DNA from: Mycobacterium sp. SMC-8
GTDB taxonomy: Bacteria > Actinomycetota > Actinomycetes > Mycobacteriales > Mycobacteriaceae
Reading direction: 5' to 3'
Assembly (NCBI RefSeq): GCF_025263565.1
Contig: NZ_CP079865.1
Coordinates: 4,092,001-4,156,000 of the forward strand
Length of the DNA: 64,000 bases
Made by a program: the position numbers and the translations under genes. This document shows, piece after piece, positions 16,603 through 29,184 of the stretch (position 1 is its first letter; every line of letters starts with the position of its first letter). The notes below the pieces were generated by a model. It was not told the DNA's origin. It saw nothing but the letters and a program-made list of their open reading frames with translations, and searched no databases.

Positions 16603-17886
16603 GGCCTTTAGGTTTTCGGGGTTACCACACCAACCGCAACCTTTAGGACGACTCGCGTGCGCGTCAGTACTGCATTTAACCGTCTCTTGGCCATTCCCGG
16701 AGCCACCGTCACCGAAGTCAGCATCGGCGACCGAGATGTCGAAGTGGTGCTGCGGCCCACCGCACGCCTGCTGAGCTGCCCGTGCGGCAAACGCCTCCGG
16801 TCGGTCTACGACCGGCGCCGCCGACGCTGGCGCCACCTCGATCTGGCCCATCGTCGGCTATGGCTGGTCTACGAGATCCGCCGCCTGGACTGCCCCGAGT
16901 GCGGCGTGATCACCGAGGAGCTGCCGTGGGCGCGGCCCGGTGCCCGCCACACCCGCGACTTCGAAGACACGGTGCTGTGGCTGGCCCAACGCACCGACCG
17001 CACATCGGTGGCCACGCTGATGCGCTGCGCCTGGGAAACCGTCACCGCCATCATCAACCGCGGCGTCGCCGAACTCCTCGATCAACGCCGACTCGACACC
17101 CTCTACCGCATCGGTGTCGACGAAGTCTGCTACCGCCACCCGCACCGCTACCTGACCATCATCGGCGATCACGACACCGGCACCGTCATCGACATCCAGC
17201 CCGGACGAAGCAAGGAATCACTAGCCAATTTCTATACCAGCCAACCAGATTCAATTCTCGATCGCATCGAGGCAGTAAGCATGGACTTCTCCAGCGTTTA
17301 CACCAGCACCACCGCCGAGCATCTGCCAGACGCTGTCATCTGCTACGACGGCTTCCACCTGATGCAGTGGGTCAACCGAGCTCTCGATCGCGTCTATGAC
17401 GGCGCGGCCACCGGCCCCGGCCGCGCCATGATGAGCACCGCGGACTGGAAAGCCGGCCGTTGGGCGCTGCGCACTGGTGAGGACAAACTCAGCGAGTCCA
17501 AACGCGACCTGGTCAACCACATCGCCAAGACCAACCGCCATATCGGACGGGCCTGGGCACTGAAAGAACAGGTCCGAGATCTCTACCGCTACGACCATCC
17601 ACCCGGTCAAGCCCGGCAACTTCTTAAAGCCTGGATCACCGCGGCCAAACGATCCCGCATTCCTGTCTTCATCTCGCTCGGCAAACGCTTTCAGGCCTAC
17701 TTCGAGCCGATCCTCGCCGCCATCGAACTCGGCATATCCAACGCCCTACTCGAAGGAATCAACGCCACGACCAGGCTGATCAACGCCCGCGGATACGGCC
17801 ACCACTCCGCCCAAACACTGGCCTCAATGATCTACCTCTGCCGCGGCGGACTCCACCCCCAGCTACCCACGAGAACCTGAGGAGCC
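16603..17886 (+). mobile_element. ISL3-family insertion sequence
   Basis: Imperfect terminal inverted repeats are visible: GGCCTTTAGGTTTTCGGGG from 16604 on the left, and GGCTCCTCAGGTTCTCGTGG on the complement at the right end (to 17886). The single transposase gene fills the element. No flanking 8-bp target duplication was found by eye, so the exact ends are uncertain by a few bases. Confidence 0.7.
16657..17880 (+). CDS. ISL3-family transposase
   Basis: A 407-residue DDE transposase of the ISL3 family. The N-terminal zinc ribbon CPCGKRLRSVYDRR...CPEC (about 41-80) precedes the catalytic domain: IGVDEVCYRHPHRYLTII (first Asp), AVSMDFSSVYTSTTAEHLPD (second Asp), and the C-terminal LLEGINATTRLINARGYG containing the Glu. 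Length and motifs are intact, so the element may be active. It starts at a GTG at 16657. Confidence 0.93.
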   Translation: MRVSTAFNRLLAIPGATVTEVSIGDRDVEVVLRPTARLLSCPCGKRLRSVYDRRRRRWRHLDLAHRRLWLVYEIRRLDCPECGVITEELPWARPGARHTRDFEDTVLWLAQRTDRTSVATLMRCAWETVTAIINRGVAELLDQRRLDTLYRIGVDEVCYRHPHRYLTIIGDHDTGTVIDIQPGRSKESLANFYTSQPDSILDRIEAVSMDFSSVYTSTTAEHLPDAVICYDGFHLMQWVNRALDRVYDGAATGPGRAMMSTADWKAGRWALRTGEDKLSESKRDLVNHIAKTNRHIGRAWALKEQVRDLYRYDHPPGQARQLLKAWITAAKRSRIPVFISLGKRFQAYFEPILAAIELGISNALLEGINATTRLINARGYGHHSAQTLASMIYLCRGGLHPQLPTRT

Positions 17887-17965: not shown

Positions 17966-17998
17966 GAACGTGGTGCGCGATACTGGGATTGAACCAGT
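17966..17998. repeat. attL: 33-bp direct repeat of the tRNA-Val 3' end
   Basis: The 33 bases from GAACGTGGTG to TTGAACCAGT recur exactly at 29152-29184. The copy contains the CCA end, acceptor strand and most of the T arm of tRNA-Val(GAC), but the rest of the tRNA is absent here. This is the host-side remnant produced by site-specific integration. Confidence 0.92.
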
Positions 17999-18169
17999 AT
18001 TGTGAATAGCATCCGGTCGTGTCTCTGAACTGCACCAACAGGCCATTTACCTGCTGATATGGCACACAGTACCCACGGAAACACGCGGAAGCAAGCGGAA
18101 TGATCGGAATCTAATGTCTACTGTTGTTGCATATTTATTGCACGACGGCGGCACGGGAGGCGGCAGACA

Positions 18170-19318
18170 GTGACGCGTGATCGCAGGTCGTTCGGCCGAA
18201 TCAGGAAACTCCCATCCGGTCGCTACCAGGCCGCCTACCTCGGCCCCGACAACCGGCTCTACAAAGCCGACTCCACATTCGCCCAGAAGGTCGACGCCGA
18301 AGCCTGGCTCACCGACCGCCGCCGCGAGATCGACCGAGAACTGTGGTCACCGCCGGGGGAGAAGCCGAAGAAAGCGAAGAAGGCAGCGACCGCTTTCGAG
18401 GTGTACGCCGAGCAATGGGTGGAATCGCGGATGGTGCGAGGCAGACCGCTTAAGCCGCGCACCAAAGCGCACTACAAGAAACTCCTCGCCCAACACATCA
18501 CCCCGACCTTCAAGGGCAAGCCCATCGACAGCCTCACCCGCGAAGCCGTCGACCGCTGGTATCGCCGCCTCGATCCCGACACCCCCACCATCCGGGCGCA
18601 CTCCTACTCCCTGCTGCGCGCCATCCTGGGCACAGCCGTAGACGACAAACTCCTCGACTCCAACCCCTGTCAGGTCCGGGGCGCAGGTACCGCCGAACGC
18701 AGGATTAGACCCAAACCGCTGACGGTCGGACAGTTGGCCACTCTCACCGCCTCCATGCCCGAGCGGCTACAGGCGATGGTGCTCCTCGGCTCCTGGACCG
18801 CTCTACGGTTCGGCGAACTGGTCGAGCTGCGCCGCAAGGACATCGACATCGACAGCGGCGTCGTCATGGTGCGGCGCGCAGCCGTTCGCGTCGACGGGGG
18901 ATGGACAGTTGGACAACCCAAAAGCGATGCCGGCGCCCGCGACGTGGCGATTCCCCCGAACATCATTCCCGCCCTCACCGAGCATCTGAAACGTCATGTG
19001 GACAGCGGCAAGGACGCGCTGTTGTTCCCCGCCGCCAGTGGTGGGCACCTCCAGCCGTCCACTCTTTACCGCCACTTCTATAAGGCCCGTACCGCGGCGA
19101 AGCGAGAAGACTTGCGATGGCACGACTTGCGGCACTCCGGTGCCGTCCTCGCCGCGCAGTCCGGTGCAACACTGGCCGAACTCATGGCCCGCCTCGGCCA
19201 CTCCACCCCGCAAGCCGCCATGCGCTACCAGCACGCCGCCCAGGGTCGCGACCAACAAATCGCGCACCGCATGGCCGAAATCGTTGCCGAATCGACCGCC
19301 GCGCCGACGCCCCGCTAA
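18170..19318 (+). CDS. int: Tyrosine-type site-specific integrase
   Basis: A 382-residue tyrosine recombinase that would integrate the element into tRNA-Val. The N-terminal arm-binding region (FGRIRKLPSGRYQAAYLGPD) and a SAM-like core-binding domain (about 75-165) precede the catalytic domain. Catalytic residues visible: Arg in WTALRFGELVELR, HDLRHSG (HxxR), LGHSTPQAAMRYQH (His and nucleophile Tyr). The GTG at 18170 is the start. It lies about 170 bases inside attL, the usual int-att arrangement. Confidence 0.95.
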   Translation: MTRDRRSFGRIRKLPSGRYQAAYLGPDNRLYKADSTFAQKVDAEAWLTDRRREIDRELWSPPGEKPKKAKKAATAFEVYAEQWVESRMVRGRPLKPRTKAHYKKLLAQHITPTFKGKPIDSLTREAVDRWYRRLDPDTPTIRAHSYSLLRAILGTAVDDKLLDSNPCQVRGAGTAERRIRPKPLTVGQLATLTASMPERLQAMVLLGSWTALRFGELVELRRKDIDIDSGVVMVRRAAVRVDGGWTVGQPKSDAGARDVAIPPNIIPALTEHLKRHVDSGKDALLFPAASGGHLQPSTLYRHFYKARTAAKREDLRWHDLRHSGAVLAAQSGATLAELMARLGHSTPQAAMRYQHAAQGRDQQIAHRMAEIVAESTAAPTPR

Positions 19319-19752
19319 ACAAGGCACCCCATCGGCGGCTACGTAAACAGCAAGCCTGTCGCCGAGGTCGACCAACGTCGAAAGGGCGCAGGTCGAGATG
19401 TACGTGAACGTGAAGATGCGGCCAGGCGTCGTCAAGCACGCGACCGACCTCAACGCCCTGATGACTTCAACACCACCTCGGTGCTGCGCTGCGGTATCCC
19501 CATCTGTGTAAAGAACGCCCTGCTCGACACGCCCGGGCGCTGGCGTGACACGCCGCGTGAATTCATCGAAATTCGATCAGCCGGCCATGCCGATTAACCA
19601 AAGGGTTATAACGATTCGATAACGAAGTTCCACGTGAAACTTTGAAACATAAGGAATCACTGTGAAAGCGGTGGCTTTTGGTTAAAGACATTTACATCGG
19701 GCGGGGTTTTGTCAACTACCGTTTGTCGGCGTCCGGTCCTACCGTCCATTTC
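19319..19752. other. Intergenic control region between int and the xis-like gene
   Basis: No convincing gene. The stretch becomes AT-richer towards its right end. It contains GTTAT...ATAAC inverted repeats around 19605-19624 and GTTCCACGTGAAAC at 19627-19640, which differs by one base from the ParB-binding parS consensus GTTTCACGTGAAAC. A promoter for the rightward phage-like genes is expected here. Confidence 0.5.
19627..19640. promoter_or_regulatory. parS-like palindrome
   Basis: GTTCCACGTGAAAC matches 13 of 14 positions of the bacterial parS consensus. It lies 113 bases before the xis-like start. It could bind host ParB or an element-encoded regulator. Only sequence similarity supports it. 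Confidence 0.45.
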
Positions 19753-19935
19753 ATGAAAAACGCACCAACTGCCAGTCGGCCGTTGAACCTGCGGGAGGCC
19801 GCCGCTTTCCTCGGAGTCACCGACCGGACCGTCCGCAATTACATCGCCCAAGGCCTCATCAAGGCCCACCGCGTCGGCCCCAAACTCCTGCGAATTGACT
19901 CCACCGAACTCGCCCGATTTCTGGAGGCCGGCTGA
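19753..19935 (+). CDS. Small helix-turn-helix protein, excisionase-like
   Basis: A 60-residue protein consisting of a winged/MerR-like HTH of the excisionase type: PLNLREAAAFLGVTDRTVRN then YIAQGLIKAHRVGPKLLRID and STELARFLEAG. In such elements this protein is the recombination directionality factor and/or repressor. The ATG at 19753 is the first that leaves the HTH at the N-terminus. It opens the rightward gene cluster. Confidence 0.8.
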   Translation: MKNAPTASRPLNLREAAAFLGVTDRTVRNYIAQGLIKAHRVGPKLLRIDSTELARFLEAG

Positions 19936-19965
19936 AAGGCGGTAAAGACCAGAAGAAAGAAAACA

Positions 19966-20310
19966 ATGAATTCAGAAAAAGAAAGTGGCCCCGCCACCAA
20001 CGAGGCCACCATCAGCGAAACCAACAACTGCTCCGAGTATATCGCCGGTCTGAAACGCCGCCGGGAAGCCGCGCGCCGCCTGCCCCGACTGGAGTGCTGC
20101 ACCACCTCGGACCCCTGGACCCACCGCCGCGCCGACCGCATCACCGAGCAGTACATCGACGGCTACAAGGCCACCGCCCAACACCTGTTGGCCAACGGGC
20201 TGGCCCCCACGCCAAACCTTCACGCGATGCGCGCCATGTGGAAACGCGGCGGCCACGACCAGCGCATCGCCATGCAAATCGCCGAACTTTGGGAGACCCC
20301 CGCAGCATGA
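19966..20310 (+). CDS. Phage-like hypothetical protein, 114 residues
   Basis: Not recognised. The protein is charged and soluble, with two adjacent cysteines (RLECCTTSDPWTHRRADRI) and a helical C-terminus (HAMRAMWKRGGHDQRIAMQI). It starts 30 bases after the xis-like stop and its own stop overlaps the next start (ATGA at 20307-20310). Its place before the ATPase suggests a replication or regulatory accessory role. Confidence 0.7.
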   Translation: MNSEKESGPATNEATISETNNCSEYIAGLKRRREAARRLPRLECCTTSDPWTHRRADRITEQYIDGYKATAQHLLANGLAPTPNLHAMRAMWKRGGHDQRIAMQIAELWETPAA

Positions 20311-20594
20311 CCGAACACACCATCCTCATCGAAACGATCGACGGCGAACCGATGCTGTCCGCAGACGCCCTCAGCCTGCTTTTCGGCGTCGACACCGAAG
20401 ACATCACCAAGTTCTCCAAAGAGCACAGCACCGCCGCCGGAACCGTCTTCCCCCAAACCTGGCTACAGGCGGGCCGTCGCCGCGCACGGGAAGCCGCTGC
20501 CGCCACCGGAGAAAACGACATCCTCAGTGCGCTTTCCTTCTGGGCAGCACGTGACCGCAACGCCGTCGTCATTCCAGTCGAGGAGGGCATGTGA
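20307..20594 (+). CDS. Phage-like hypothetical protein, 95 residues
   Basis: Not recognised by name. MLSADALSLLFGVDTEDITK resembles the N-terminal part of small phage DNA-binding or ParB-accessory proteins, followed by a basic helical segment (QAGRRRAREAAAATGE). It overlaps its neighbours by 4 bases on both sides (ATGA at 20307, GTGA at 20591), which indicates coupled translation. Confidence 0.68.
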   Translation: MTEHTILIETIDGEPMLSADALSLLFGVDTEDITKFSKEHSTAAGTVFPQTWLQAGRRRAREAAAATGENDILSALSFWAARDRNAVVIPVEEGM

Positions 20595-21802
20595 CAGCGG
20601 TCTACGACGACCCGTCAACCGAGGAACCCAACCTCCTCGCCCAGATCATCACCGCCGCCGAACTGCACCACGAAGTCTTCCCCGACCTCGTCCAGTTCGT
20701 CCACGGCATCGTCATCGAAGGGTTCGGCATCGTCGCCGGACCACCGAAACTCGGAAAGAGTTGGTGGACACTGAACCTCGCCCTCGCCGTCTCCGCTGGC
20801 GGCCGAGCGTTCGGGAAAATCCCCGTCGAGCAACGCGACGTGCTGCTCCTGGCGCTGGAGGACTCCCAACGCCGCCTCCAAAGCCGAATCCGCGCAGTGT
20901 GGGGAAGCGACATTCCACCCCACCGGCTGCACATCCTGACCTCGGTGCAGCCCGGACTGCTCATCCCCACCATCACCACATGGCTGCAAACCCACCCCGG
21001 CGGTCTGATCGTCCTCGACACCCTCGGTCGGGCACGCCAGCAACGCCGACGCGGCGACGACGCCTACCTCGCCGACTACCAGGCCGGCGTCGCCCTCAAG
21101 AACGTGGTCGACGCCTTCCCCGGCAGCGCACTCCTCTCCGTCCACCACACCCGCAAAGCGTCCAGTGACGATTTCGTAGACGACCTGTCCGGCACCCTCG
21201 GCCTAGCCGGGTCCGCCGACTACGTGCTGGTCCTGCGGCGCCAACGCAACAGCAACGACGCCACCCTCCAAGTCACCGGACGGGACGCACCCGAAGGGGA
21301 GTACGCCTTCTCCACCGCCGAGGGAGCCTGGACCCTGTCAGGCAACGGACTGGCCGAAGCCGCTGCTGAAGCCGAGAGCCGCAAAGAGAGTCGCAATCTC
21401 GGTGATAACGCGCTCAAGGTTCTCGCCTACGTCAACGAGCATCCGTCCGGGGTCACACCCGAAGCAGTCGCCGAACATCTGGGCATCAACAACAACGATG
21501 CAGGCACATATCTACGGCGACTCCACTCCAAAGGACGCATTGACAGACCCACCAGGGGCTTCTACACCCCTGTATGTGTGTCTGAAGTGTCTGAACTGTC
21601 TGAAACGACGGTTCATCCAATCGACATTCAGACACAAAAGACACTTCAGACACCTTTATGTGCTGTCTGTGAGTGCGTAATTGCAAACCCTGACACCGCA
21701 CCTACATGGAACGAGTCGACTTACTGCGACGACTGTTCCGAAACAATCGACCACACCCTCGATGAACTAATGGCAATGGCCGATGAGGAACCGAATGGCT
21801 AA
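20591..21802 (+). CDS. RepA-like P-loop ATPase with winged-helix and zinc-finger C-terminus
   Basis: A 403-residue protein. Walker A is VAGPPKLGKSWWTLNLA (around 48-64), VLLLALEDSQRRLQSR and GGLIVLDTLGRARQ (Walker B) follow, and LLSVHHTRKASSDDF is the sensor-like block of RecA-fold RepA/AAA_25 proteins. A winged-helix region (ALKVLAYVNEHPSGVTPEAV) and a C-terminal zinc finger (CAVCECV...YCDDC) come next. It probably acts in element replication as a helicase or loader. No separate primase domain is seen. Confidence 0.84.
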   Translation: MTAVYDDPSTEEPNLLAQIITAAELHHEVFPDLVQFVHGIVIEGFGIVAGPPKLGKSWWTLNLALAVSAGGRAFGKIPVEQRDVLLLALEDSQRRLQSRIRAVWGSDIPPHRLHILTSVQPGLLIPTITTWLQTHPGGLIVLDTLGRARQQRRRGDDAYLADYQAGVALKNVVDAFPGSALLSVHHTRKASSDDFVDDLSGTLGLAGSADYVLVLRRQRNSNDATLQVTGRDAPEGEYAFSTAEGAWTLSGNGLAEAAAEAESRKESRNLGDNALKVLAYVNEHPSGVTPEAVAEHLGINNNDAGTYLRRLHSKGRIDRPTRGFYTPVCVSEVSELSETTVHPIDIQTQKTLQTPLCAVCECVIANPDTAPTWNESTYCDDCSETIDHTLDELMAMADEEPNG

Positions 21803-22016
21803 ACGAAAATCCCGCCTCTGCCGCGACTGCCGAAAAGCAAAGACAACATCGGTCACGGCGTTGTGCATCGCCTGCCGACCCGCAGACGCAATACCCGCCA
21901 TCCACCGCGACAGGGAAATGGTCAGCTTCGGCGGCATCACCCTGACCGAAAACCAAGCCATCAACTTTGCCAACGCAATCATCGACACCATCGAAACGAG
22001 TAGGAGCACACCATGA
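21795..22016 (+). CDS. Small zinc-ribbon protein, 73 residues
   Basis: Two CxxC pairs are visible (LCRDCRKAKTTS and LCIACRPADA), so it should bind one zinc ion. The rest is a short helical tail. No named family. The start at 21795 overlaps the end of the ATPase gene by 8 bases; an ATG at 21783 is also in frame. Its stop overlaps the next start (ATGA). Confidence 0.62.
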   Translation: MAKRKSRLCRDCRKAKTTSVTALCIACRPADAIPAIHRDREMVSFGGITLTENQAINFANAIIDTIETSRSTP

Positions 22017-22216
22017 AAATCCGATTCCTCCGAGTCCTCGGCAGCCGCGCACAACACCCCACCGTCCTCGCCATCGCCGACGACTACGCCGTCCGCTGGG
22101 ACCCCAAAGACGACTGGTCCTGCACCTGCGACGAACTCACCTTCCCCGAATGCCCACACGTCGACGCCGTCGAGGCACTGCTCGACCCCCGGGTGACAGG
22201 ACCCAAGAAGAAATGA
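22013..22216 (+). CDS. Small SWIM-like zinc-finger protein, 67 residues
   Basis: The C-terminal half reads DDWSCTCDELTFPECPHVDA, a CxC...CxH arrangement like a SWIM zinc finger, and the N-terminal half is a short beta-rich segment. SWIM modules bind DNA or protein. It starts and ends in 4-base overlaps with its neighbours (22013 and 22213). It is well formed but its function is unknown. Confidence 0.65.
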   Translation: MKIRFLRVLGSRAQHPTVLAIADDYAVRWDPKDDWSCTCDELTFPECPHVDAVEALLDPRVTGPKKK

Positions 22217-22479
22217 CCGACCCCTTCATCGACCTCAACGACTTCATCAGACTGCATCTCGAAGACGACGGCCTGCGAGTCGGCCTCATCCCAAGCGATG
22301 GCGGCATCGCCATCCTGCTCACCCTCGCCACCGACCTCGGCAAGTTCGTAGTCGGCCTCAACGCCAACCACCTCCAGATCATCTACGCGATCTTGCAGAA
22401 CATCGCCAACTTCACCACCGAGGAGTACAAGGCCACCTACGACCAACTCGCGGCCCTCGCTCAACAGGAGGAATCGTGA
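22213..22479 (+). CDS. Phage-like hypothetical protein, 88 residues
   Basis: Not recognised. An acidic protein with a hydrophobic central stretch (GGIAILLTLATDLGKFVVGL) that is more like a buried helix than a membrane segment because charged residues flank it closely, then LQIIYAILQNIANFTTEEYK. Its stop overlaps the GTG start of the HNH gene. Confidence 0.62.
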   Translation: MTDPFIDLNDFIRLHLEDDGLRVGLIPSDGGIAILLTLATDLGKFVVGLNANHLQIIYAILQNIANFTTEEYKATYDQLAALAQQEES

Positions 22480-22850
22480 CAGCCAGACCTTGCCTCAGCT
22501 GCGGCGACCTCACCCCAACCGGCACCTACTGCACCGACTGCAAACCACCCGACAAGAGCAGCGCCACCGCACGCGGCTACGACTGGCAATGGACCAAGCT
22601 CAGCCGACGAGCCCGACGCCTTCAGCCCTTCTGCAGCGTGTGCAACGGCACCACCGACCTGCAAGCCGACCACAGCCCAGAAGCGTGGCGACGGAAGGAC
22701 GCCGGACTGCCCATCCGCCTGCAAGACATCGACGTCGTCTGCGGAGCCCACAACCGCGAGCGAGGCCGCGCACGACCCACCCCCGTGGAGGTCAAACCGA
22801 CCGATAGCCGACCCGTGGGCAAGGCAAAGTTTGAGAGTGAGACCGCGTGA
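22476..22850 (+). CDS. HNH endonuclease-type protein
   Basis: A 124-residue protein next to the terminase. An N-terminal zinc knuckle (CLSCGDLTPTGTYCTDC) is followed by an HNH core: FCSVCNGTTDLQADHSPEAW supplies CxxC and the DH pair, and DIDVVCGAHNRERG supplies the final Cys and Asn. Phage HNH proteins beside terminase often assist DNA cleavage during packaging. The GTG start at 22476 overlaps the previous stop and its own stop overlaps the terminase start. Confidence 0.83.
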   Translation: MTARPCLSCGDLTPTGTYCTDCKPPDKSSATARGYDWQWTKLSRRARRLQPFCSVCNGTTDLQADHSPEAWRRKDAGLPIRLQDIDVVCGAHNRERGRARPTPVEVKPTDSRPVGKAKFESETA

Positions 22851-24310
22851 AGTCCGGGGCGAAGGGCGCGATTCAGGCCGCTCCCTTGCGCTTCAGCCGC
22901 TACCCGGAGGAACGCGCTGCTCGTCGGCTTAAGTTCATCGCTGACTACTTGGTGGTGCCGAAGGGTGTGGGCGCGGGGAAGCCGGTGCGGCTCCGCGACT
23001 TCCAGACCGACATCGTGGAAGCTGCGTTCGCCGAGGGTATCCGCACCGCTCTGGTGTCGATTCCGAGGGCTAATGGCAAGACCGCTCTCGCGGCCATGCT
23101 GGCCGTAGCGGAGCTGTTCGTCGGTGACGCGTCGGCGGAGGTGTTGGTCGTCGCCAGCGACCAGAGGCAGGCCGCTATCACCCTCCGAATGGCCAGACGG
23201 ATGATTGAGCTCAACCCGAAGTTGGCGGACCGGGCGCACATCTACGCGGACCGCATTCTGGTGCCCCACAACGACTCCATGCTGCTGCCGCTGCCGGCCG
23301 AACCGGGTGCGCTGCACGGGCACGACCCCTCGCTGCTCATCGTGGACGAGTTGCACGTCGTCACCGAGGACGTGTGGGAGGCGGTCACGTCGGTCACCGG
23401 CAAGCGGCCCGAGTCGCTGACGTTGGCCATATCGACGCCCGCCGCGTCACCGGATTCGGTGATGTGGCGGCTCGTGCAGCATGGGCGCGACGCAGACGAC
23501 CCGGCCTTCACGCTGCGGGAGTACATGGCCCCGGAGGGCTGCGACACCACCGACCGTGAGGCATGGCGGATTGCGAACCCGGCGTTGGCGTGTGAGAAGC
23601 CGTTCTTGTCCGAGGACGGGATGGAGGCGGCGCGGCGCACCATCCGCGAACCCGTCTTCCGGCAGTTGCGGCTAGGGCAGTGGGTGACCGGTATCGAGGC
23701 GTGGCTGCCGTTCGGTGCGTGGGATGCCTGCGTAGGCGATAGGACCACGCAGCCCACGGGGGAGCGTGTCGTGCTGGCGTTCGACGGTTCAGCGTCGGGC
23801 GACTCTACAGCGCTGGTCGGCTGCACGGTGGGGGAGAAACCTCACCTGTGGGTCGAGGGGTTGTGGGAGAACCCCGGCGATGAACGCTGGCGTGTACCCC
23901 GGGAGGACGTCGACCTGGCGGTGGCGATGGCGTTCGACAAGTACAAGGTGGTCGAGTTGGCTGCCGACCCGTGGGGCTGGCGCTCCGAGATCGAGGGATG
24001 GGCGAAGCGGCACGGTGAGAAACGCGTCGTGGAATGGAACACCGCTCACGCCGCCCGTATGGCCCCGGCCACGGACCGCATGTATCAGGCGGTGGCCACC
24101 AAATCTCTTACCCACGACGGTGACCAACGGTTGGCGGCTCACATCGCGCATTGCGTGGCGAAGCCGACCCCGATGGGTGACCTCGTCAGTAAGGACAAGC
24201 GGGGGTCGCCCCGAAAGATAGATGCGGCTGTCGCAGGCATTGTGGCGTTTGACCGCGCCTCGTTCCATCACATCAACAAACCCCGAAAGAGAGCAGTAGG
24301 TTTCAGATGA
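22847..24310 (+). CDS. Terminase large subunit
   Basis: A 487-residue packaging motor. The ATPase half has Walker A SIPRANGKTALAAMLAV and Walker B SLLIVDELHVVTEDVWEAV. The nuclease half starts at VLAFDGSASGDSTALVGCTV with its metal-binding Asp, and continues with ELAADPWGWRSEIEGW. It cuts and pumps DNA into the prohead through the portal. No clear small terminase subunit is adjacent; the HNH or one of the small upstream proteins may serve. GTG start at 22847. Confidence 0.93.
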   Translation: MKSGAKGAIQAAPLRFSRYPEERAARRLKFIADYLVVPKGVGAGKPVRLRDFQTDIVEAAFAEGIRTALVSIPRANGKTALAAMLAVAELFVGDASAEVLVVASDQRQAAITLRMARRMIELNPKLADRAHIYADRILVPHNDSMLLPLPAEPGALHGHDPSLLIVDELHVVTEDVWEAVTSVTGKRPESLTLAISTPAASPDSVMWRLVQHGRDADDPAFTLREYMAPEGCDTTDREAWRIANPALACEKPFLSEDGMEAARRTIREPVFRQLRLGQWVTGIEAWLPFGAWDACVGDRTTQPTGERVVLAFDGSASGDSTALVGCTVGEKPHLWVEGLWENPGDERWRVPREDVDLAVAMAFDKYKVVELAADPWGWRSEIEGWAKRHGEKRVVEWNTAHAARMAPATDRMYQAVATKSLTHDGDQRLAAHIAHCVAKPTPMGDLVSKDKRGSPRKIDAAVAGIVAFDRASFHHINKPRKRAVGFR

Positions 24311-25623
24311 ACGATTTACTTACCACGCTGTTGCAGAAGGTCGACGAGCCCGCCGCGAAATATGCGGACTTGGAACGCTATTACACCGCGACGCAGCCGT
24401 TGACGTTCTTGTCCCCGGAGGCGAAGACAGCGTTGGGGGACAGGTTCGGCCGGATGGCTGCGAACCTCCCCCGCCTCGCGGTCACGAGTTTGGCCGAACG
24501 GCTCCGCGTGGTCGGATTCGACGGTGTCGACGTGTTCGACGACTGGCAGCGCAACGACATGGACGAGCTGTCCGCAGTGGCCATCCGCGAAGCCCTGCTG
24601 CTGGGTTCGGCGTATGTGCTTGTGTGGGTGGACCGTTACGGCCGACCACAGGTCAGTGTCGAGTCAGCCAAGCAGATGTCATGCCTGCGCGACGCAGGCA
24701 CGAGACGCATCACGCACACCCTGAAGCGTTGGGAGACAGCCACAACGACCGAAGCCGTGCTTTACGGGCCGGACGAGATTGTCCGGTACCGGGCCAACGC
24801 CACCGGGGCGACCACGAACGGGTTTCATGCTGTGGAGTCCATCAGCAACCCGTTGGGTGTGCCGCCGGTCGTCAGGCTGTTGAACTCTGACCGCATCCTC
24901 GACGAGGGGGTTTCTGAGATAGAGGATTTGAAGCCTGTCGCAGACCTGCTTAACAAGCTGCTGGCGGATTTGGCTGTGGCGTCGGAGTATTCGGCGCGTA
25001 GCCGCCGATGGGCTACCGGTTTGGAACTGGACGAACGACCCATCCTCGACGACGACGGCAACGACACCGGCGAAACCGAACCAGTGAATCCTATCGACGA
25101 AGGCATGCGGATGATGGTTTCTGAATCCGAAAACACGAAATTCGGGCAATTGGACGGCGCGGACCTCGGAGGCTTCACCAACGCCGTAGACATTGTGCTG
25201 GGAATGGTGTCTGCCACGTCGGCGATGCCGATGCATTACCTCGGCGTGATGAACAATCAGCCGGCCAGCGCTGACGCGCTGCGCGCCAGTGAAGCGTCGC
25301 TCACCGCAAGAGCCGAGGCCCGCCAGAAGCAGTTCGGACGCGCATTCGAGGACGTGGCACGCCTCATCGTGGCTGTCCGGGACGGGGTGGACCCGCTCAA
25401 CGTCGATGTCCGGGTGAAGTGGGCTGACGCGTCCACCCGAAGTGTCGCCCAGGAGGCGGACGCGGTGACCAAAATGTTCGCCGCCGGTCTGCTGCCCGCC
25501 TCCTACGCCCTGCAACGACTCGGCTACAGCGACAGCGAGATTGAGGCTATCCGTATCGCCCGACGCACCGAAGCACTCGACACGGTAGGCGTGAATCTGC
25601 AAGCCCTGCCGAGGTCGGCGTGA
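24307..25623 (+). CDS. Portal protein (SPP1 Gp6-like)
   Basis: A 438-residue portal subunit of the Gp6-like type: LPRLAVTSLAERLRVVGFDG, EALLLGSAYVLVWVDRYGRP, ISNPLGVPPVVRLLN and TSAMPMHYLGVMNNQPASAD are the usual blocks. Twelve subunits form the DNA entry vertex. It overlaps the terminase stop by 4 bases and the next gene start by 4 bases, so it belongs to the same coupled run. Confidence 0.92.
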   Translation: MNDLLTTLLQKVDEPAAKYADLERYYTATQPLTFLSPEAKTALGDRFGRMAANLPRLAVTSLAERLRVVGFDGVDVFDDWQRNDMDELSAVAIREALLLGSAYVLVWVDRYGRPQVSVESAKQMSCLRDAGTRRITHTLKRWETATTTEAVLYGPDEIVRYRANATGATTNGFHAVESISNPLGVPPVVRLLNSDRILDEGVSEIEDLKPVADLLNKLLADLAVASEYSARSRRWATGLELDERPILDDDGNDTGETEPVNPIDEGMRMMVSESENTKFGQLDGADLGGFTNAVDIVLGMVSATSAMPMHYLGVMNNQPASADALRASEASLTARAEARQKQFGRAFEDVARLIVAVRDGVDPLNVDVRVKWADASTRSVAQEADAVTKMFAAGLLPASYALQRLGYSDSEIEAIRIARRTEALDTVGVNLQALPRSA

Positions 25624-26243
25624 CCGCCGTCGAGGACTTCCAGTCCGAAACCGAAACCCTGGCCGCCACGGTGCAACGTCACGTCCTGATGCTGTACGCC
25701 GCCTATCTTGCCGGGGAGCTTCCCGAGCAGGACGTCGTGCCGCTCATCGTCGCCGCCATCAACCAAGCCACCTCGGCGGCCGTGGCTTTGGGGGATGTGT
25801 GGCTGGTCGCACAGATTGAGGAACGGACCGGCGCAGCCGCGTTAGCGACCGGCGTTCCGCCGACCGACGACGCCGACCGGCTCACGAAGGCCGTCAGCAC
25901 CGTCCTCGCTGAGCGTGACAGCGCGTCACTCTCAAATCTGGAACCCGACCCCACCGTCACGCGCCTGGACCGACTGGCGCGGTCGGAGACGTTCGAGGCC
26001 GCCCAGAACGGGACGTGGCAGGCGATGCAGCAACAACCCCTAGTCGAGGGATGGGTCCGGCAGATGGAGGCCGGCAGGTGTCAGCTCTGTGAGTGGTGGT
26101 CCCGGGACAGCCGCGTGTGGCCGAAAGCCCACCCTTTCCAACGCCATAAGGGCTGCAACTGCCAGCCCCGAATCGTGCTGGCCGACAACATCAAATCCAC
26201 CGGATACACCAGAAGATTGGAGAGAAATGCCCGAGCAAGCTGA
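25620..26243 (+). CDS. MuF-like capsid morphogenesis protein
   Basis: A 207-residue protein in the MuF position after portal. The C-terminal CQLCEWWSRDSRVWPKAHPF and HKGCNCQPRIV (four Cys plus His) form the conserved zinc-like block seen in actinophage MuF-type minor head proteins. The N-terminal 120 residues are helical. It starts with a GTG overlapping the portal stop. The next gene begins inside its last 17 bases. Confidence 0.78.
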   Translation: MTAVEDFQSETETLAATVQRHVLMLYAAYLAGELPEQDVVPLIVAAINQATSAAVALGDVWLVAQIEERTGAAALATGVPPTDDADRLTKAVSTVLAERDSASLSNLEPDPTVTRLDRLARSETFEAAQNGTWQAMQQQPLVEGWVRQMEAGRCQLCEWWSRDSRVWPKAHPFQRHKGCNCQPRIVLADNIKSTGYTRRLERNARAS

Positions 26244-26670
26244 AGACACGGACACCCCCGACGACCTTCCCTTGCAATCGCAGGAAACGGGAGACGAACC
26301 CGATTTGGAATCGGGAAACCTCGAAGGGTCCGATTTGGAATCGGACCCCGAGATGTTCCCACTTGCCTACGTCGAACAACTGCGGCAGGAAAACGGCAAG
26401 TACCGGCAGCGCGCACAGCAGGCCGACACGTACGCCGAACGACTGCACACCGAATTAGTACGGGCCACTGGCAGGTTGGCCGACCCCACCGACCTGCCGT
26501 ACATCGAGGACCATCTTGTCGACGCCAACAAAATGGCGGACGCCATCACCGAACTGCTCAACCGCAAACCGCATTTGGCGGCCCGTCGCGCGTCCGGCGA
26601 CATCGGGCAGGGACACAACCCCTCGGCGGGAACCGTGGACCTGGCCGCGATATTGCGGGGTACCGGCTAA
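26227..26670 (+). CDS. Scaffold-like protein
   Basis: A 147-residue protein, strongly acidic at the N-terminus with a duplicated DLESGNLEGSDLESDPE segment, then a coiled-coil-prone stretch (YVEQLRQENGKYRQRAQQAD) and a C-terminal tail. These are standard features of phage scaffolding proteins that guide capsid assembly. It lies directly before the capsid gene. The ATG at 26227 overlaps the end of the MuF-like gene. Confidence 0.82.
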   Translation: MPEQAEDTDTPDDLPLQSQETGDEPDLESGNLEGSDLESDPEMFPLAYVEQLRQENGKYRQRAQQADTYAERLHTELVRATGRLADPTDLPYIEDHLVDANKMADAITELLNRKPHLAARRASGDIGQGHNPSAGTVDLAAILRGTG

Positions 26671-26722
26671 TACCCTCAGGGGGTATCCTGTAGGGGTCGG
26701 TCCTGGTGGCCGGCCCCTACAG
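26670..26722 (+). promoter_or_regulatory. Two tandem hairpins between scaffold and capsid genes
   Basis: ATACCC (26670-26675) pairs with GGGTAT (26681-26686). Then CTGTAGGGG and four more bases (26688-26700) pair with 26710-26722, giving a 13-bp stem with a 9-base loop (one G-T pair). The first overlaps the scaffold stop codon. There is no T-tract. They could be a partial terminator, an RNA processing site or a stabiliser setting capsid mRNA level. Confidence 0.6.
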
Positions 26723-26802
26723 CGTCCTGGCGGCGATGGGTCTCCCCGAACCCTCTTGAGGGTTGCGTTTGAAACGCGACCCCCTGTCACGCAAGGACTC
26801 CC

Positions 26803-27648
26803 ATGACTGAAACCACTGCCGCCAATCCGGAGCTGCTTGCCGACCAGGTATCCAGCCTGCTCGTTCAGCCCCTCGAAGCCGCCTCCGTCGTTCTCTCCAG
26901 CGGCCCCCGCATCTTCGACACCTCCGGCGTTCTCCGCATCCCGAAGCTCGTCTCCGGCTCCACCCCGACGTTCGTCGGTGAAGGTGGGCTCATCCCGGAC
27001 GACGCCGACGTCGACTTCGACGAGTTGGTCCTGATGCCGACCGAGCGTAAGAGCATTAAAACCATTCTGAAGTACACCGATGAGTTGGTGCGACAGTCCG
27101 TCATCGGCATTGACGCGGTGTTGAAAGCCCGTCTCGTCAAGGATGTTTCGGACGCCCTGGACAACGCTCTGCTGAAGGGCACCGGAGCATCGGACACCAT
27201 CACCGGCATCATCAACCAGCCCGACGTCCAGACCCACGTGTGGGACCCCACGGACCCGGATTCCATGCTGGACGCCATCGGCCTGGCCGTGGCCGCCGAG
27301 GTGACCCCGAATCGGTGGTTCCTCAACGGTGCCGATTTCGTTGCCCTTCGGAAGGTGAAGGAAGCGACCGGCTCGAAGAAGTACGTGCTGGAGTCCGACC
27401 TGACCAAGGACGCCACCTACCGACTTTTCGGAATCTCCGTCCAGGTGACGAACAAGCTGGCACCGGGGGATGCCATCCTGGCCGACATGTCGCAGGTGGC
27501 CATCGCCCGCGACATCGCACCCTCAGTCAAGGTGCTCACCGAGCGGTACGCCGAGTACGGAATGGTCGGCCTCCGGGTCCAGTGCCGTTACGACCTCGGC
27601 CTCCTGCACCCCGAAGGTGTCATCTACCTCACCGAGGGCGGCAGCTAA
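26803..27648 (+). CDS. Major capsid protein, HK97 fold
   Basis: A 281-residue capsid subunit of the HK97 family. Typical blocks: VLRIPKLVSGSTPTFVGEGG, LMPTERKSIKTILKYTDELV (E-loop/spine helix region), ALDNALLKGTG, and YAEYGMVGLRVQCRYDLGLL at the C-terminal P-domain. The protein is shorter than many siphophage capsids, in line with a small head. No protease gene is seen nearby, so maturation cleavage may be absent. It starts at an ATG 132 bases after the scaffold stop. Confidence 0.92.
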   Translation: MTETTAANPELLADQVSSLLVQPLEAASVVLSSGPRIFDTSGVLRIPKLVSGSTPTFVGEGGLIPDDADVDFDELVLMPTERKSIKTILKYTDELVRQSVIGIDAVLKARLVKDVSDALDNALLKGTGASDTITGIINQPDVQTHVWDPTDPDSMLDAIGLAVAAEVTPNRWFLNGADFVALRKVKEATGSKKYVLESDLTKDATYRLFGISVQVTNKLAPGDAILADMSQVAIARDIAPSVKVLTERYAEYGMVGLRVQCRYDLGLLHPEGVIYLTEGGS

Positions 27649-27966
27649 GTGGCCGTAGAGGCTGAACAGGTGGCGGCGTTCCTCGGACAACCAGAGAACG
27701 CCGCCACCCTGGCCACCGCCGAGCAGGCCATCCCGGTTGTCTCCACGATGCTGCGGGCCTACGTCCGTGGTGGAGCCGGTTGGGAGTCGAACGACGAGCT
27801 TGACGCGGTGATCGTCGCCGCAGCGGCCCGCATGGTGTCCAACCCGTCAGGGCTGGCACACGACGACACCGCCGGACCCTTCACCCGCAGCGTCCGGGGC
27901 GCATTCCAAGGCTGGACACTCGCGGAACTGTTCGTGTTGAACCGCTACAGAAAGACGGCGCTATGA
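27649..27966 (+). CDS. Head-tail connector (gp6-like adaptor)
   Basis: A 105-residue mostly helical protein, starting at the base after the capsid stop. VAAFLGQPENAATLATAEQA, then TMLRAYVRGGAGWESNDELD and FQGWTLAELFVLNRYRKTAL, resemble phage adaptor proteins that bind below the portal ring. The end overlaps the next gene by 4 bases. Identification rests on position and general pattern. Confidence 0.75.
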   Translation: MAVEAEQVAAFLGQPENAATLATAEQAIPVVSTMLRAYVRGGAGWESNDELDAVIVAAAARMVSNPSGLAHDDTAGPFTRSVRGAFQGWTLAELFVLNRYRKTAL

Positions 27967-28307
27967 CCCTCCCGGCCCGTCACACGGTCGGATGGCACAC
28001 CGTCGACACCGGAGCCGTAGACGGCGAAGGCAACCCCGTCATCGAGTACCTTCCCTCGCTCGACGAACCGGGCACACCGACCGCCGTCATCGGCTGGGCG
28101 ACACCGCAATCCACCGAACCCGAGATAGGTCGCGTCATCCACGACATCGACCTTTTTGTGCCACCGTCGGTCGCCGGACAGCCCGCCGATGTTGTGGACC
28201 TCCCGGATGGCCAGTACGAGGTCGTTGGGTGGCCGCTGGACTGGACCCACGGCCCCCACCGGTACGCCCCCGGTAAGGTCGTGCAACTCAAACGGGTGAC
28301 CGGCTGA
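27963..28307 (+). CDS. Head-completion (stopper-like) protein
   Basis: A 114-residue beta-rich protein. HTVGWHTVDTGAVDGEGNPV, DIDLFVPPSVAGQPADVVDL and DGQYEVVGWPLDWTHGPHRY match small phage head-closure proteins. It is the last rightward structural gene. The next genes that would normally follow (tail terminator, tube, tape measure) are missing. Confidence 0.72.
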   Translation: MTLPARHTVGWHTVDTGAVDGEGNPVIEYLPSLDEPGTPTAVIGWATPQSTEPEIGRVIHDIDLFVPPSVAGQPADVVDLPDGQYEVVGWPLDWTHGPHRYAPGKVVQLKRVTG

Positions 28308-28317
28308 TGGACAGCAG

Positions 28318-28351
28318 TGCGCCCCGGCCCTTGTCTGGGGGCCGAGGCGCA
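28318..28351. terminator. Bidirectional terminator-like hairpin
   Basis: TGCGCC at 28318-28323 and GGCCC inside it pair with GGGCC and GGCGCA (28346-28351), with a small internal mismatch. It lies between the convergent head-gene cluster and the minus-strand gene ending at 28365, where a shared terminator is expected. Confidence 0.65.
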
Positions 28352-28364
28352 TCTGTTTGCGTTC

Positions 28365-28649
28365 CTAGCTCGGTTCAGTGGTCGCGTTCTCAATCGCCTT
28401 CGTGAGCGTGTCGCGTAGGTACACAGCTTGGTCGACGCTGAGCCACGCCTCGGTACCGTCGTCTACCTCGTCGGGACCCGCCTCGATTCCAATCATGATC
28501 GGCTCCGCGAACCCATCATGTATCGAAGTCCAGACCGACACGTGGCGTAGCTTTCCTATGATGCTGGAGCCGTCAACGCCATCAGTCCAGTTGTGCTCTC
28601 TGTGATCGTCGTCGGTGTTGGTGCACCAATCGAACGCGCACTTGCTCAT
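28365..28649 (-). CDS. Phage-element hypothetical protein, 94 residues
   Basis: Not recognised. The protein starts MSKCAFDWCTNTDDDHREHN (Cys, Cys, His, a possible metal site), then carries a beta-rich segment (HVSVWTSIHDGFAEPIMIGI) and ends in a helix (WLSVDQAVYLRDTLTKAIEN). The C-terminal pattern is like that of the next gene (the two share a DQA...L helix), so they may be paralogues. The start overlaps that gene's stop by 4 bases. Confidence 0.66.
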   Translation of the reverse strand: MSKCAFDWCTNTDDDHREHNWTDGVDGSSIIGKLRHVSVWTSIHDGFAEPIMIGIEAGPDEVDDGTEAWLSVDQAVYLRDTLTKAIENATTEPS

Positions 28650-29056
28650 CGCTGGACCCACCCATCAATTAATGCTGCCGACTCCAGCAGGAGCGCCGCC
28701 AAGATCCGCGCCTGGTCGGAGTTCAGGCTTGCCGGTGCCCCGTCGATGTATACCGATGGCGCTTCACCATTGCTGCCGTCGTCGATATGGCCGTCACGGT
28801 GCTGGATGCAGGCAGTACTGACGAACACATCGGAGTCGATCACGTGGCGGTTGTAGCCGAGGATGACCCGGCGACCCTCACCGCCAGAACCCCAATCGTC
28901 GATTGTGTCTGCGCCTGCCGGCGATGCGGGCTCGGTGGCGCAGGCGTGGGTGTGGGCGCCGATTCCACCGCAGCATGTGCGGGTCGTCGAATCGACGGTC
29001 CAGGCGGGATCAGCCCATGGGGCGTCCGCGATGTTGTGGTCGGTTTCCGTACTCAT
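28646..29056 (-). CDS. Phage-element hypothetical protein, 136 residues (DUF6907-like)
   Basis: Cysteines and histidines cluster in the N-terminal half (TRTCCGGIGAHTHACA), and the C-terminus reads APSVYIDGAPASLNSDQARI then LAALLLESAALIDGW, a pattern common in actinobacterial DUF6907-type proteins. Function unknown. It is the first gene of a two-gene minus-strand unit beside attR, opposite to all other genes of the element, so it may be expressed from the integrated state. Confidence 0.66.
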   Translation of the reverse strand: MSTETDHNIADAPWADPAWTVDSTTRTCCGGIGAHTHACATEPASPAGADTIDDWGSGGEGRRVILGYNRHVIDSDVFVSTACIQHRDGHIDDGSNGEAPSVYIDGAPASLNSDQARILAALLLESAALIDGWVQR

Positions 29057-29151
29057 GCCAGCCTCCAGGTTGGGACTGACCGGGGCGGCTATTGCACGTT
29101 AGTTGCACGGGATTCACAAAGCGGGTCTAGATACATGCTCTGACCTGCATC

Positions 29152-29184
29152 GAACGTGGTGCGCGATACTGGGATTGAACCAGT
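29152..29184. repeat. attR: 33-bp direct repeat inside tRNA-Val(GAC)
   Basis: Exact copy of 17966-17998. Here it forms the 3' part of the intact tRNA gene, so the element supplies the functional 3' end after integration. Confidence 0.92.

What the first reader, a model, noticed from the sequence alone, without database searches (positions are those of the whole stretch)
17966..29184. Tail-less phage-like element in tRNA-Val: possible capsid-forming satellite related to phiRv1/phiRv2
The element encodes integration, replication, packaging and a complete head (terminase, portal, MuF, scaffold, capsid, two completion proteins) within 11.2 kb, but no tail, tape measure, lysis or capsid protease gene. 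This gene set is what defines capsid-forming phage-inducible islands, which make their own small heads and borrow helper tails. All ORFs look intact, so this copy may still be mobile, unlike the phiRv copies interrupted in M. tuberculosis.
Basis: partly seen in the sequence, partly recalled or inferred. Interest (0 to 1): 0.82.

Follow-up and report, generated by a model that had tools for sequence, protein, structure and literature searches.

The report
Tail-less phage satellite in a mycobacterium
An 11-kilobase DNA parasite in a mycobacterial chromosome carries the genes for its own virus head but no recognisable tail, and its tail-docking protein resembles that of one particular group of phages, which suggests whose tails it borrows.

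Summary
Window 17966-29184 is an intact element with a perfect 33-bp att repeat, the right copy in tRNA-Val(gac). It encodes integrase, HTH/Xis, AAA_25 replication protein, HNH, TerL, portal, MuF, scaffold, HK97-type capsid, adaptor and stopper. No tail, lysis, protease or TerS gene was recognised. A capsid-forming satellite is the best reading.

Support from relatives: (1) 28 sampled island portals form one clade (100/100) apart from 9 phage or other portals. (2) 31 att-delimited mycobacterial islands are 10,050-11,320 bp (SD 3.2%) because their parts compensate (r=-0.79; 0 of 20,000 shuffles as tight). A 32nd, 12,855 bp, carries an IS. That fits a capsid-volume limit better than random decay. 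(3) Head genes are under purifying selection (dN/dS 0.04-0.21). (4) Portal, TerL and capsid are at most 36% identical to their best listed phage matches, but the stopper is 45% identical end to end to Avanivirus gp10, and two of three tailed prophages examined with this stopper carry Avani-type tails. Predicted helper: a phage with such a tail.

The kind is known (candidate mycobacterial PICIs, 2023; 'prophage-like elements', 2014). Sequence kinship to phiRv1/phiRv2 was not tested. Helper, particles and transfer are not shown.

The parts
17966..17998 (.). attL, 33-bp repeat
18170..19318 (+). tyrosine integrase
   Evidence: PF00589, phrog_1
19678..19935 (+). HTH_17 protein, excisionase/AlpA-like role inferred
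   Evidence: PF12728, phrog_66
19966..20310 (+). orf3, unknown, shared with some related islands
20307..20594 (+). orf4, unknown
   Evidence: no PHROG hit
20591..21802 (+). AAA_25 ATPase, replication protein inferred
   Evidence: PF13481; helicase/primase PHROGs
21783..22479 (+). three small ORFs (orf6, orf7, orf8), unknown
22476..22850 (+). HNH endonuclease
   Evidence: phrog_144, 2e-9
22847..24310 (+). terminase large subunit
   Evidence: PF03354, PF20441; phrog_9
24307..25623 (+). portal, SPP1 gp6-like
   Evidence: PF05133; phrog_104
25620..26243 (+). MuF/VG15-like head protein
   Evidence: phrog_1657, 2e-6; PF25310 below its cut-off
26227..26670 (+). scaffold
   Evidence: phrog_4708, 9e-7; start
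26803..27648 (+). major capsid protein, HK97 type
   Evidence: PF05065, 6e-32
27649..27966 (+). Ad1 head-tail adaptor
   Evidence: phrog_137; fold
27963..28307 (+). Hc1 stopper, 45% identical to Avanivirus gp10
   Evidence: phrog_763
28365..28661 (-). m1, unknown
28646..29056 (-). m2, unknown
29152..29184 (.). attR, 33-bp repeat inside tRNA-Val

Best explanation
The element is an intact, tail-less, capsid-encoding phage satellite. Inferred cycle: on helper infection or induction, Int and the HTH/Xis protein excise it from tRNA-Val; the AAA_25 protein starts its replication; HNH and TerL cut and package unit-length DNA into a small SPP1-like procapsid built from portal, MuF, scaffold and capsid; Ad1 and Hc1 close the head; Hc1 receives the helper's tail; helper lysis releases particles. 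About 10.8 kb is the capacity of this head, which keeps element length fixed. The head belongs to a satellite lineage, while the stopper matches the tail module of Avanivirus-like phages, so a phage with that kind of tail is the predicted helper. Shown by sequence: gene set, intact frames, att and an empty site in a relative, tail-less family, length constancy, selection on head genes, stopper resemblance. Inferred: helper dependence, small capsid, packaging, tail docking, and the helper's identity (weaker than the rest, about 0.5).
For: Gene set. Portal clade of islands 100/100. Length 10,758 +/- 348 bp in 31 islands with compensation between parts, also within subclades and in independent contrasts; the long 32nd island carries a transposase gene. 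dN/dS 0.04-0.21 against the sibling. No tail or lysis family displayed among 136 representatives of ORFs inside 31 other islands. Stopper 45% identical to Avani gp10 while no other head protein has a strong BLASTP match to Avani; prophages L195 and L196 carry the stopper with Avani-type tails. Metagenome contigs with integrase next after the head genes: L039, L018, L206.
Against: No TerS or protease recognised. No helper, particle or transfer shown. The sibling in DSM 45541 has an interrupted stopper gene, so some copies decay. Island L153 carries a tail terminator. Prophage L197 has the stopper but little of the Avani tail; 4 of 24 Mycobacterium phage records with the stopper, and every Gordonia one displayed, are not among the 60 rows displayed for the Avani major tail protein. 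With L148 the smaller subclade loses length significance (n=10, p=0.11). The integrase-downstream order also occurs in L036/L209/L232, where it may be a second element.
Confidence: 0.8

Rival explanations
1. A decayed prophage remnant that lost its tail and lysis genes, as similar mycobacterial elements were read in 2014.
For: PMC3986857 (passages) describes elements of about 9-13 kb with such genes and calls several of them remnants. The sibling's stopper gene is broken.
Against: Constant length with compensation, purifying selection, intact ORFs, and one separate portal clade. Independent decay of larger phages should not stop at one size and one gene border.
Confidence: 0.08
2. A complete small phage with an unrecognised or very short tail of its own, needing no helper.
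For: Several small ORFs are unknown.
Against: The structural operon ends at the stopper and is followed by two opposite-strand ORFs and attR; no lysis family was hit; the stopper is of a long-tailed phage type.
Confidence: 0.06
3. A resident anti-phage island that uses head or neck proteins to spoil helper assembly and is not itself packaged.
For: PICIs are reported to interfere with helper reproduction (PMC6092414, passages). m1, m2 and orf3 have unknown function.
Against: Full packaging genes are kept under selection (portal to Ad1 tested), length is clamped, and ten small or replication proteins gave no PADLOC hit except an HTH match of the Xis.
Confidence: 0.06

Closest known systems
Candidate PICIs of Mycobacterium (PMC10654092; abstract and passages seen)
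   Same: Integrase plus major capsid gene in a small island, some in tRNA genes, with terminase and scaffold genes in some
   Different: Nothing in the passages seen sets this element apart; they name no helper and report no fixed length
cf-PICIs (described in PMC10690885 and PMC11389934, passages seen; the founding paper was not read)
   Same: Own capsid, portal, connectors, TerL and HNH; no tail
   Different: No TerS or maturation protease recognised here; helper use not shown
MulchRoom/MiniFlayer satellites of Streptomyces (PMC10690885, passages seen)
   Same: Actinobacterial satellites with packaging and capsid genes; helper tails on MulchRoom
   Different: They have direct terminal repeats, parasitise virulent helpers and have no obvious replicase; direct sequence comparison was not made
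Avanivirus phages (Avani record)
   Same: HNH, TerL, portal, MuF, scaffold, capsid, adaptor, stopper in the same order; stopper 45% identical
   Different: About 54-59 kb; Avani also has TerS and tail genes; its other head proteins have no strong BLASTP match to the element

Membership tests
Capsid-forming PICI (cf-PICI) | Own capsid, portal and head-tail connectors | tested here: met
Capsid-forming PICI (cf-PICI) | TerL and HNH endonuclease | tested here: met
Capsid-forming PICI (cf-PICI) | Small terminase subunit (TerS) | tested here: not met
   no profile hit; a divergent TerS cannot be excluded
Capsid-forming PICI (cf-PICI) | Head maturation protease | tested here: not met
   no protease family hit; related phages' MuF-type genes are sometimes so annotated
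Capsid-forming PICI (cf-PICI) | No tail genes | tested here: met
   relatives with the L153 exception
Capsid-forming PICI (cf-PICI) | Helper-dependent tails, induction and transfer | not testable with these tools
   needs experiment
Classical Gram-positive PICI (PMC6092414) | Absence of phage structural genes | tested here: not met
Classical Gram-positive PICI (PMC6092414) | att site never used by prophages | not tested
   no prophage att survey was made
Mycobacterial candidate PICI (PMC10654092) | Integrase plus major capsid gene in a phage-like region | tested here: met
phiRv1/phiRv2 lineage | Sequence homology of capsid or integrase | not tested
   no phiRv sequence was fetched; kind, size and site compared only through PMC3986857 and PMC10654092 passages

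The most novel reading that the evidence does not exclude
A large actinobacterial satellite lineage has two working rules. Its genome length is clamped near 10.75 kb by its own capsid. Its tail specificity sits in one exchangeable plug, the stopper, taken from the helper's tail module and mounted on a head unlike the helper's. The window copy would then be a satellite of phages with Avani-type tails, and many small 'prophage-like elements' of mycobacteria would be working parasites of nameable phages, not relics.
Probability: 0.5. Interest if true: 0.75.

Novelty: new member of a known kind. Interest (0 to 1): 0.58.

Why it matters
Such islands are common in mycobacteria (portal matches in 56 of 248 genomes, some of them weak or fragmentary) and have been called remnants or only candidate PICIs. 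The fixed length and the selection on head genes argue that they work. The stopper points to a testable helper group; the passages I saw of the published candidates name none. If right, it opens mycobacterial satellites to experiment in a phylum where PMC10023795 (passages seen) says validation lags behind.

Tried and rejected
Near-DNA search of the whole element in phage records: no match. Direct terminal repeats: none in the IMG/VR contigs of 7 kb or more of the first set nor in the 38 further loci, so IMG/VR lengths were not used as proof of free genomes; many of these contigs end at the last head gene. L008 first looked permuted but is more likely cut inside the AAA gene with unmatched DNA at its right end. 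The L155/L156 att core was not found in L039. phrog_104 rang in none of the 14 named control genomes and PF05065 in four others, so this route told nothing on phiRv. TerS was sought and not found. Contig-length peak among portal homologues: of 118 longest-contig values copied (2 of 120 rows had none), 52 lie at 6-18 kb and 25 of these at 10-12 kb; suggestive only, as these contigs could not be read.

Rows dropped before counts. Of 71 portal places listed, 52 were fetched (51 with E below 1e-120, plus G231) and 19 weaker or fragmentary ones were not. Length test: 53 loci including the window; L174 left out as contrast, L140 and L163 without Ad1, 16 without a repeat, L124 (16 bp) and L142 (17 bp) below the 20-bp limit; 32 remained, 4 of them accepted by me without a tRNA call (L144, L148, L155, L156); L148 is reported both in and out. 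Of the IMG/VR repeats, I counted 4 as tRNA-type by eye (L009, L038, L041, L042) and left out L007, L048 and L072. Portal tree: 28 of 129 satellite portals, 9 others; Avani, a very long branch, was left out. The 7 Avani controls were not traced one by one.
Full report
Observation. The element sits between two perfect 33-bp repeats (17966-17998 and 29152-29184); the right copy is the 3' part of tRNA-Val(gac). Left to right it encodes integrase, HTH/Xis, two small proteins, AAA_25 ATPase, three small ORFs, HNH, TerL, portal, MuF-like protein, scaffold, capsid, Ad1 and Hc1, then two ORFs on the other strand. The ORFs are open. Mycolicibacterium iranicum DSM 45541 (85% over a 686-bp flank) has an uninserted tRNA-Val at the same tRNA cluster (L084). 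An ISL3 transposase gene (16657-17880) lies just left of attL.

Family. The portal alignment gave 80 IMG/VR loci (best 80 of 148), mostly 9-13 kb or shorter fragments, with the order HNH-TerL-portal-(MuF)-scaffold-capsid-Ad1, and matches in 56 of 248 Mycobacterium genomes. Of 71 places listed there I fetched 52. Gene maps, read by eye, showed compact islands of one plan wherever the portal match was about 42% or better. The one weak match fetched, L174 (28%), looks like a tailed prophage: an 823-residue ORF downstream and a weak Avani gp18 match. In an IQ-TREE of 37 portals, 28 island portals (of 129 at hand) form one clade with 100/100 support against 9 others: six named tailed phages, an unverified faecal scaffold, L174 and a Nesterenkonia locus whose context I did not examine. 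A first FastTree of 139 rows gave the same grouping with weak support, 0.44.

Tail genes. Inside 31 att-delimited islands other than the window (30 plus L148), 444 ORFs were called: 219 matched window proteins, 25 were under 60 residues, and 200 were reduced to 136 representatives. The PHROG and Pfam families displayed for these are integrase, regulators, replication, head, neck and a transposase, with no tail or lysis family; 25 of 94 and 25 of 29 families are displayed. An earlier scan of 132 representatives of downstream ORFs, host flanks included, with 7 Avani controls, displayed 25 of 101 families: tail families as expected from the controls, a tail terminator with two members, one of which is in island L153, and endolysin-type matches (phrog_102, two members; phrog_971, one) that I did not trace. 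L153 goes one gene beyond the head-tail border.

Length. With att repeats of 20 bp or more, 31 islands including the window measure 10,050-11,320 bp, mean 10,758, SD 348. Their sites include tRNA-Val, Ala, Leu, Pro, Gly, Met, Asn, Tyr, Arg, Phe and Ser. The three segments (attL to portal, portal to Ad1 end, Ad1 end to attR) have SDs of 490, 340 and 499 bp; shuffled among islands they give 773 bp on average, and none of 20,000 shuffles reached 348. Left part and rest are anticorrelated (r=-0.79). The effect holds within portal subclades (n=22, p=0.00045; n=9, p=0.00135) and in independent contrasts (r=-0.57, 29 contrasts). The 32nd island, L148, is 12,855 bp and carries a DUF772/DDE transposase gene; with it the whole set still gives no shuffle as low (SD 504), but the smaller subclade plus L148 gives p=0.11. 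Four IMG/VR loci with tRNA-type repeats measure 10,742-10,811 bp by the positions. I read this as the packaging limit of a small head. About 11 kb is close to satellite P4 in its T=4 head (recalled), so T=4 is the natural prediction.

Selection and exchange. Against the sibling island of DSM 45541 (L173), dN/dS is 0.04 (portal), 0.21 (MuF), 0.16 (scaffold), 0.12 (capsid) and 0.17 (Ad1); against L125 and L123 it is 0.10-0.43 with high dS. The stopper was not tested. The sibling shares one 87.7%-identical DNA stretch, window 24284-28355, from the TerL/portal border to just past the stopper; a 297-bp piece of m2 is 91% identical and two left-hand pieces are 72-73%. TerL is 36% and the integrase 27% identical as protein. 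So packaging and integration modules are swapped around a shared head. The sibling's stopper gene is interrupted by an in-frame stop; the window copy is open.

Mobility. The order expected of an excised circle, integrase next after the head genes, is seen in metagenome contigs L039 (stopper, about 0.25 kb, integrase), L018 and L206; no labelled integrase lies there in the chromosomal maps. Tandem copies could give the same order, and L036/L209/L232 (one contig) shows a distant integrase downstream that may belong to a second element. For the window copy, mobility rests on intact genes and the empty site in a relative.

Literature. PMC3986857 (passages) describes such elements in 2014 as prophage-like elements and remnants and lists phiRv2 as 10.8 kb in tRNA-Val. 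PMC10654092 (passages) calls integrase-plus-capsid regions candidate PICIs and counts phiRv1/phiRv2 among PICI-like elements. PMC10690885 (passages) gives the cf-PICI gene set and the Streptomyces satellites. PMC11389934 (passages) reports three cfPICI capsid radiations. PMC6092414 (passages) gives classical PICI features. PMC10023795 (passages) says actinobacterial validation lags. [quoted passage not shown] In the listings of searches I saw no report of the length clamp or of an Avani-type stopper on these islands; they cover open-licence PMC papers only.

Verdict. A real, intact member of a known kind, with two new quantitative pointers: fixed length, and a stopper that points to a helper group.

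Noticed in passing
window 16657-17880 and about 30550-51600: An ISL3 transposase abuts attL, and the right flank holds many transposase genes of several families.
   Followed up: partly
L173/L001, after Ad1: The sibling satellite's stopper gene is interrupted by an in-frame stop; the window copy is open.
   Followed up: partly
L003-L082: TerL comes in two divergent types (about 35% or about 60-79% identical to the window's) behind closely related portals, and capsids also fall into groups (about 40-50% or about 55-86%), so modules are mixed.
   Followed up: partly
L146:6626-7780 and L168:4815-5936: Capsid genes of 384 and 373 residues whose match to the window capsid is split, as if about 100 residues were inserted.
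   Followed up: no
L153:5151-5630: A tail terminator (PF23841) follows Ad1 in an island otherwise of the satellite plan.
   Followed up: partly
P0121 against window 27963-28307: The stopper homologue is identical up to residue 64 and then diverges, as after recombination inside the gene.
   Followed up: no
L176 (MT836167) and L177 (MT835972): Unannotated 12-14 kb phage-labelled scaffolds from human faeces: one has a portal 31% identical to the window's, grouping with Isolde in the tree, the other an integrase 48% identical.
   Followed up: no
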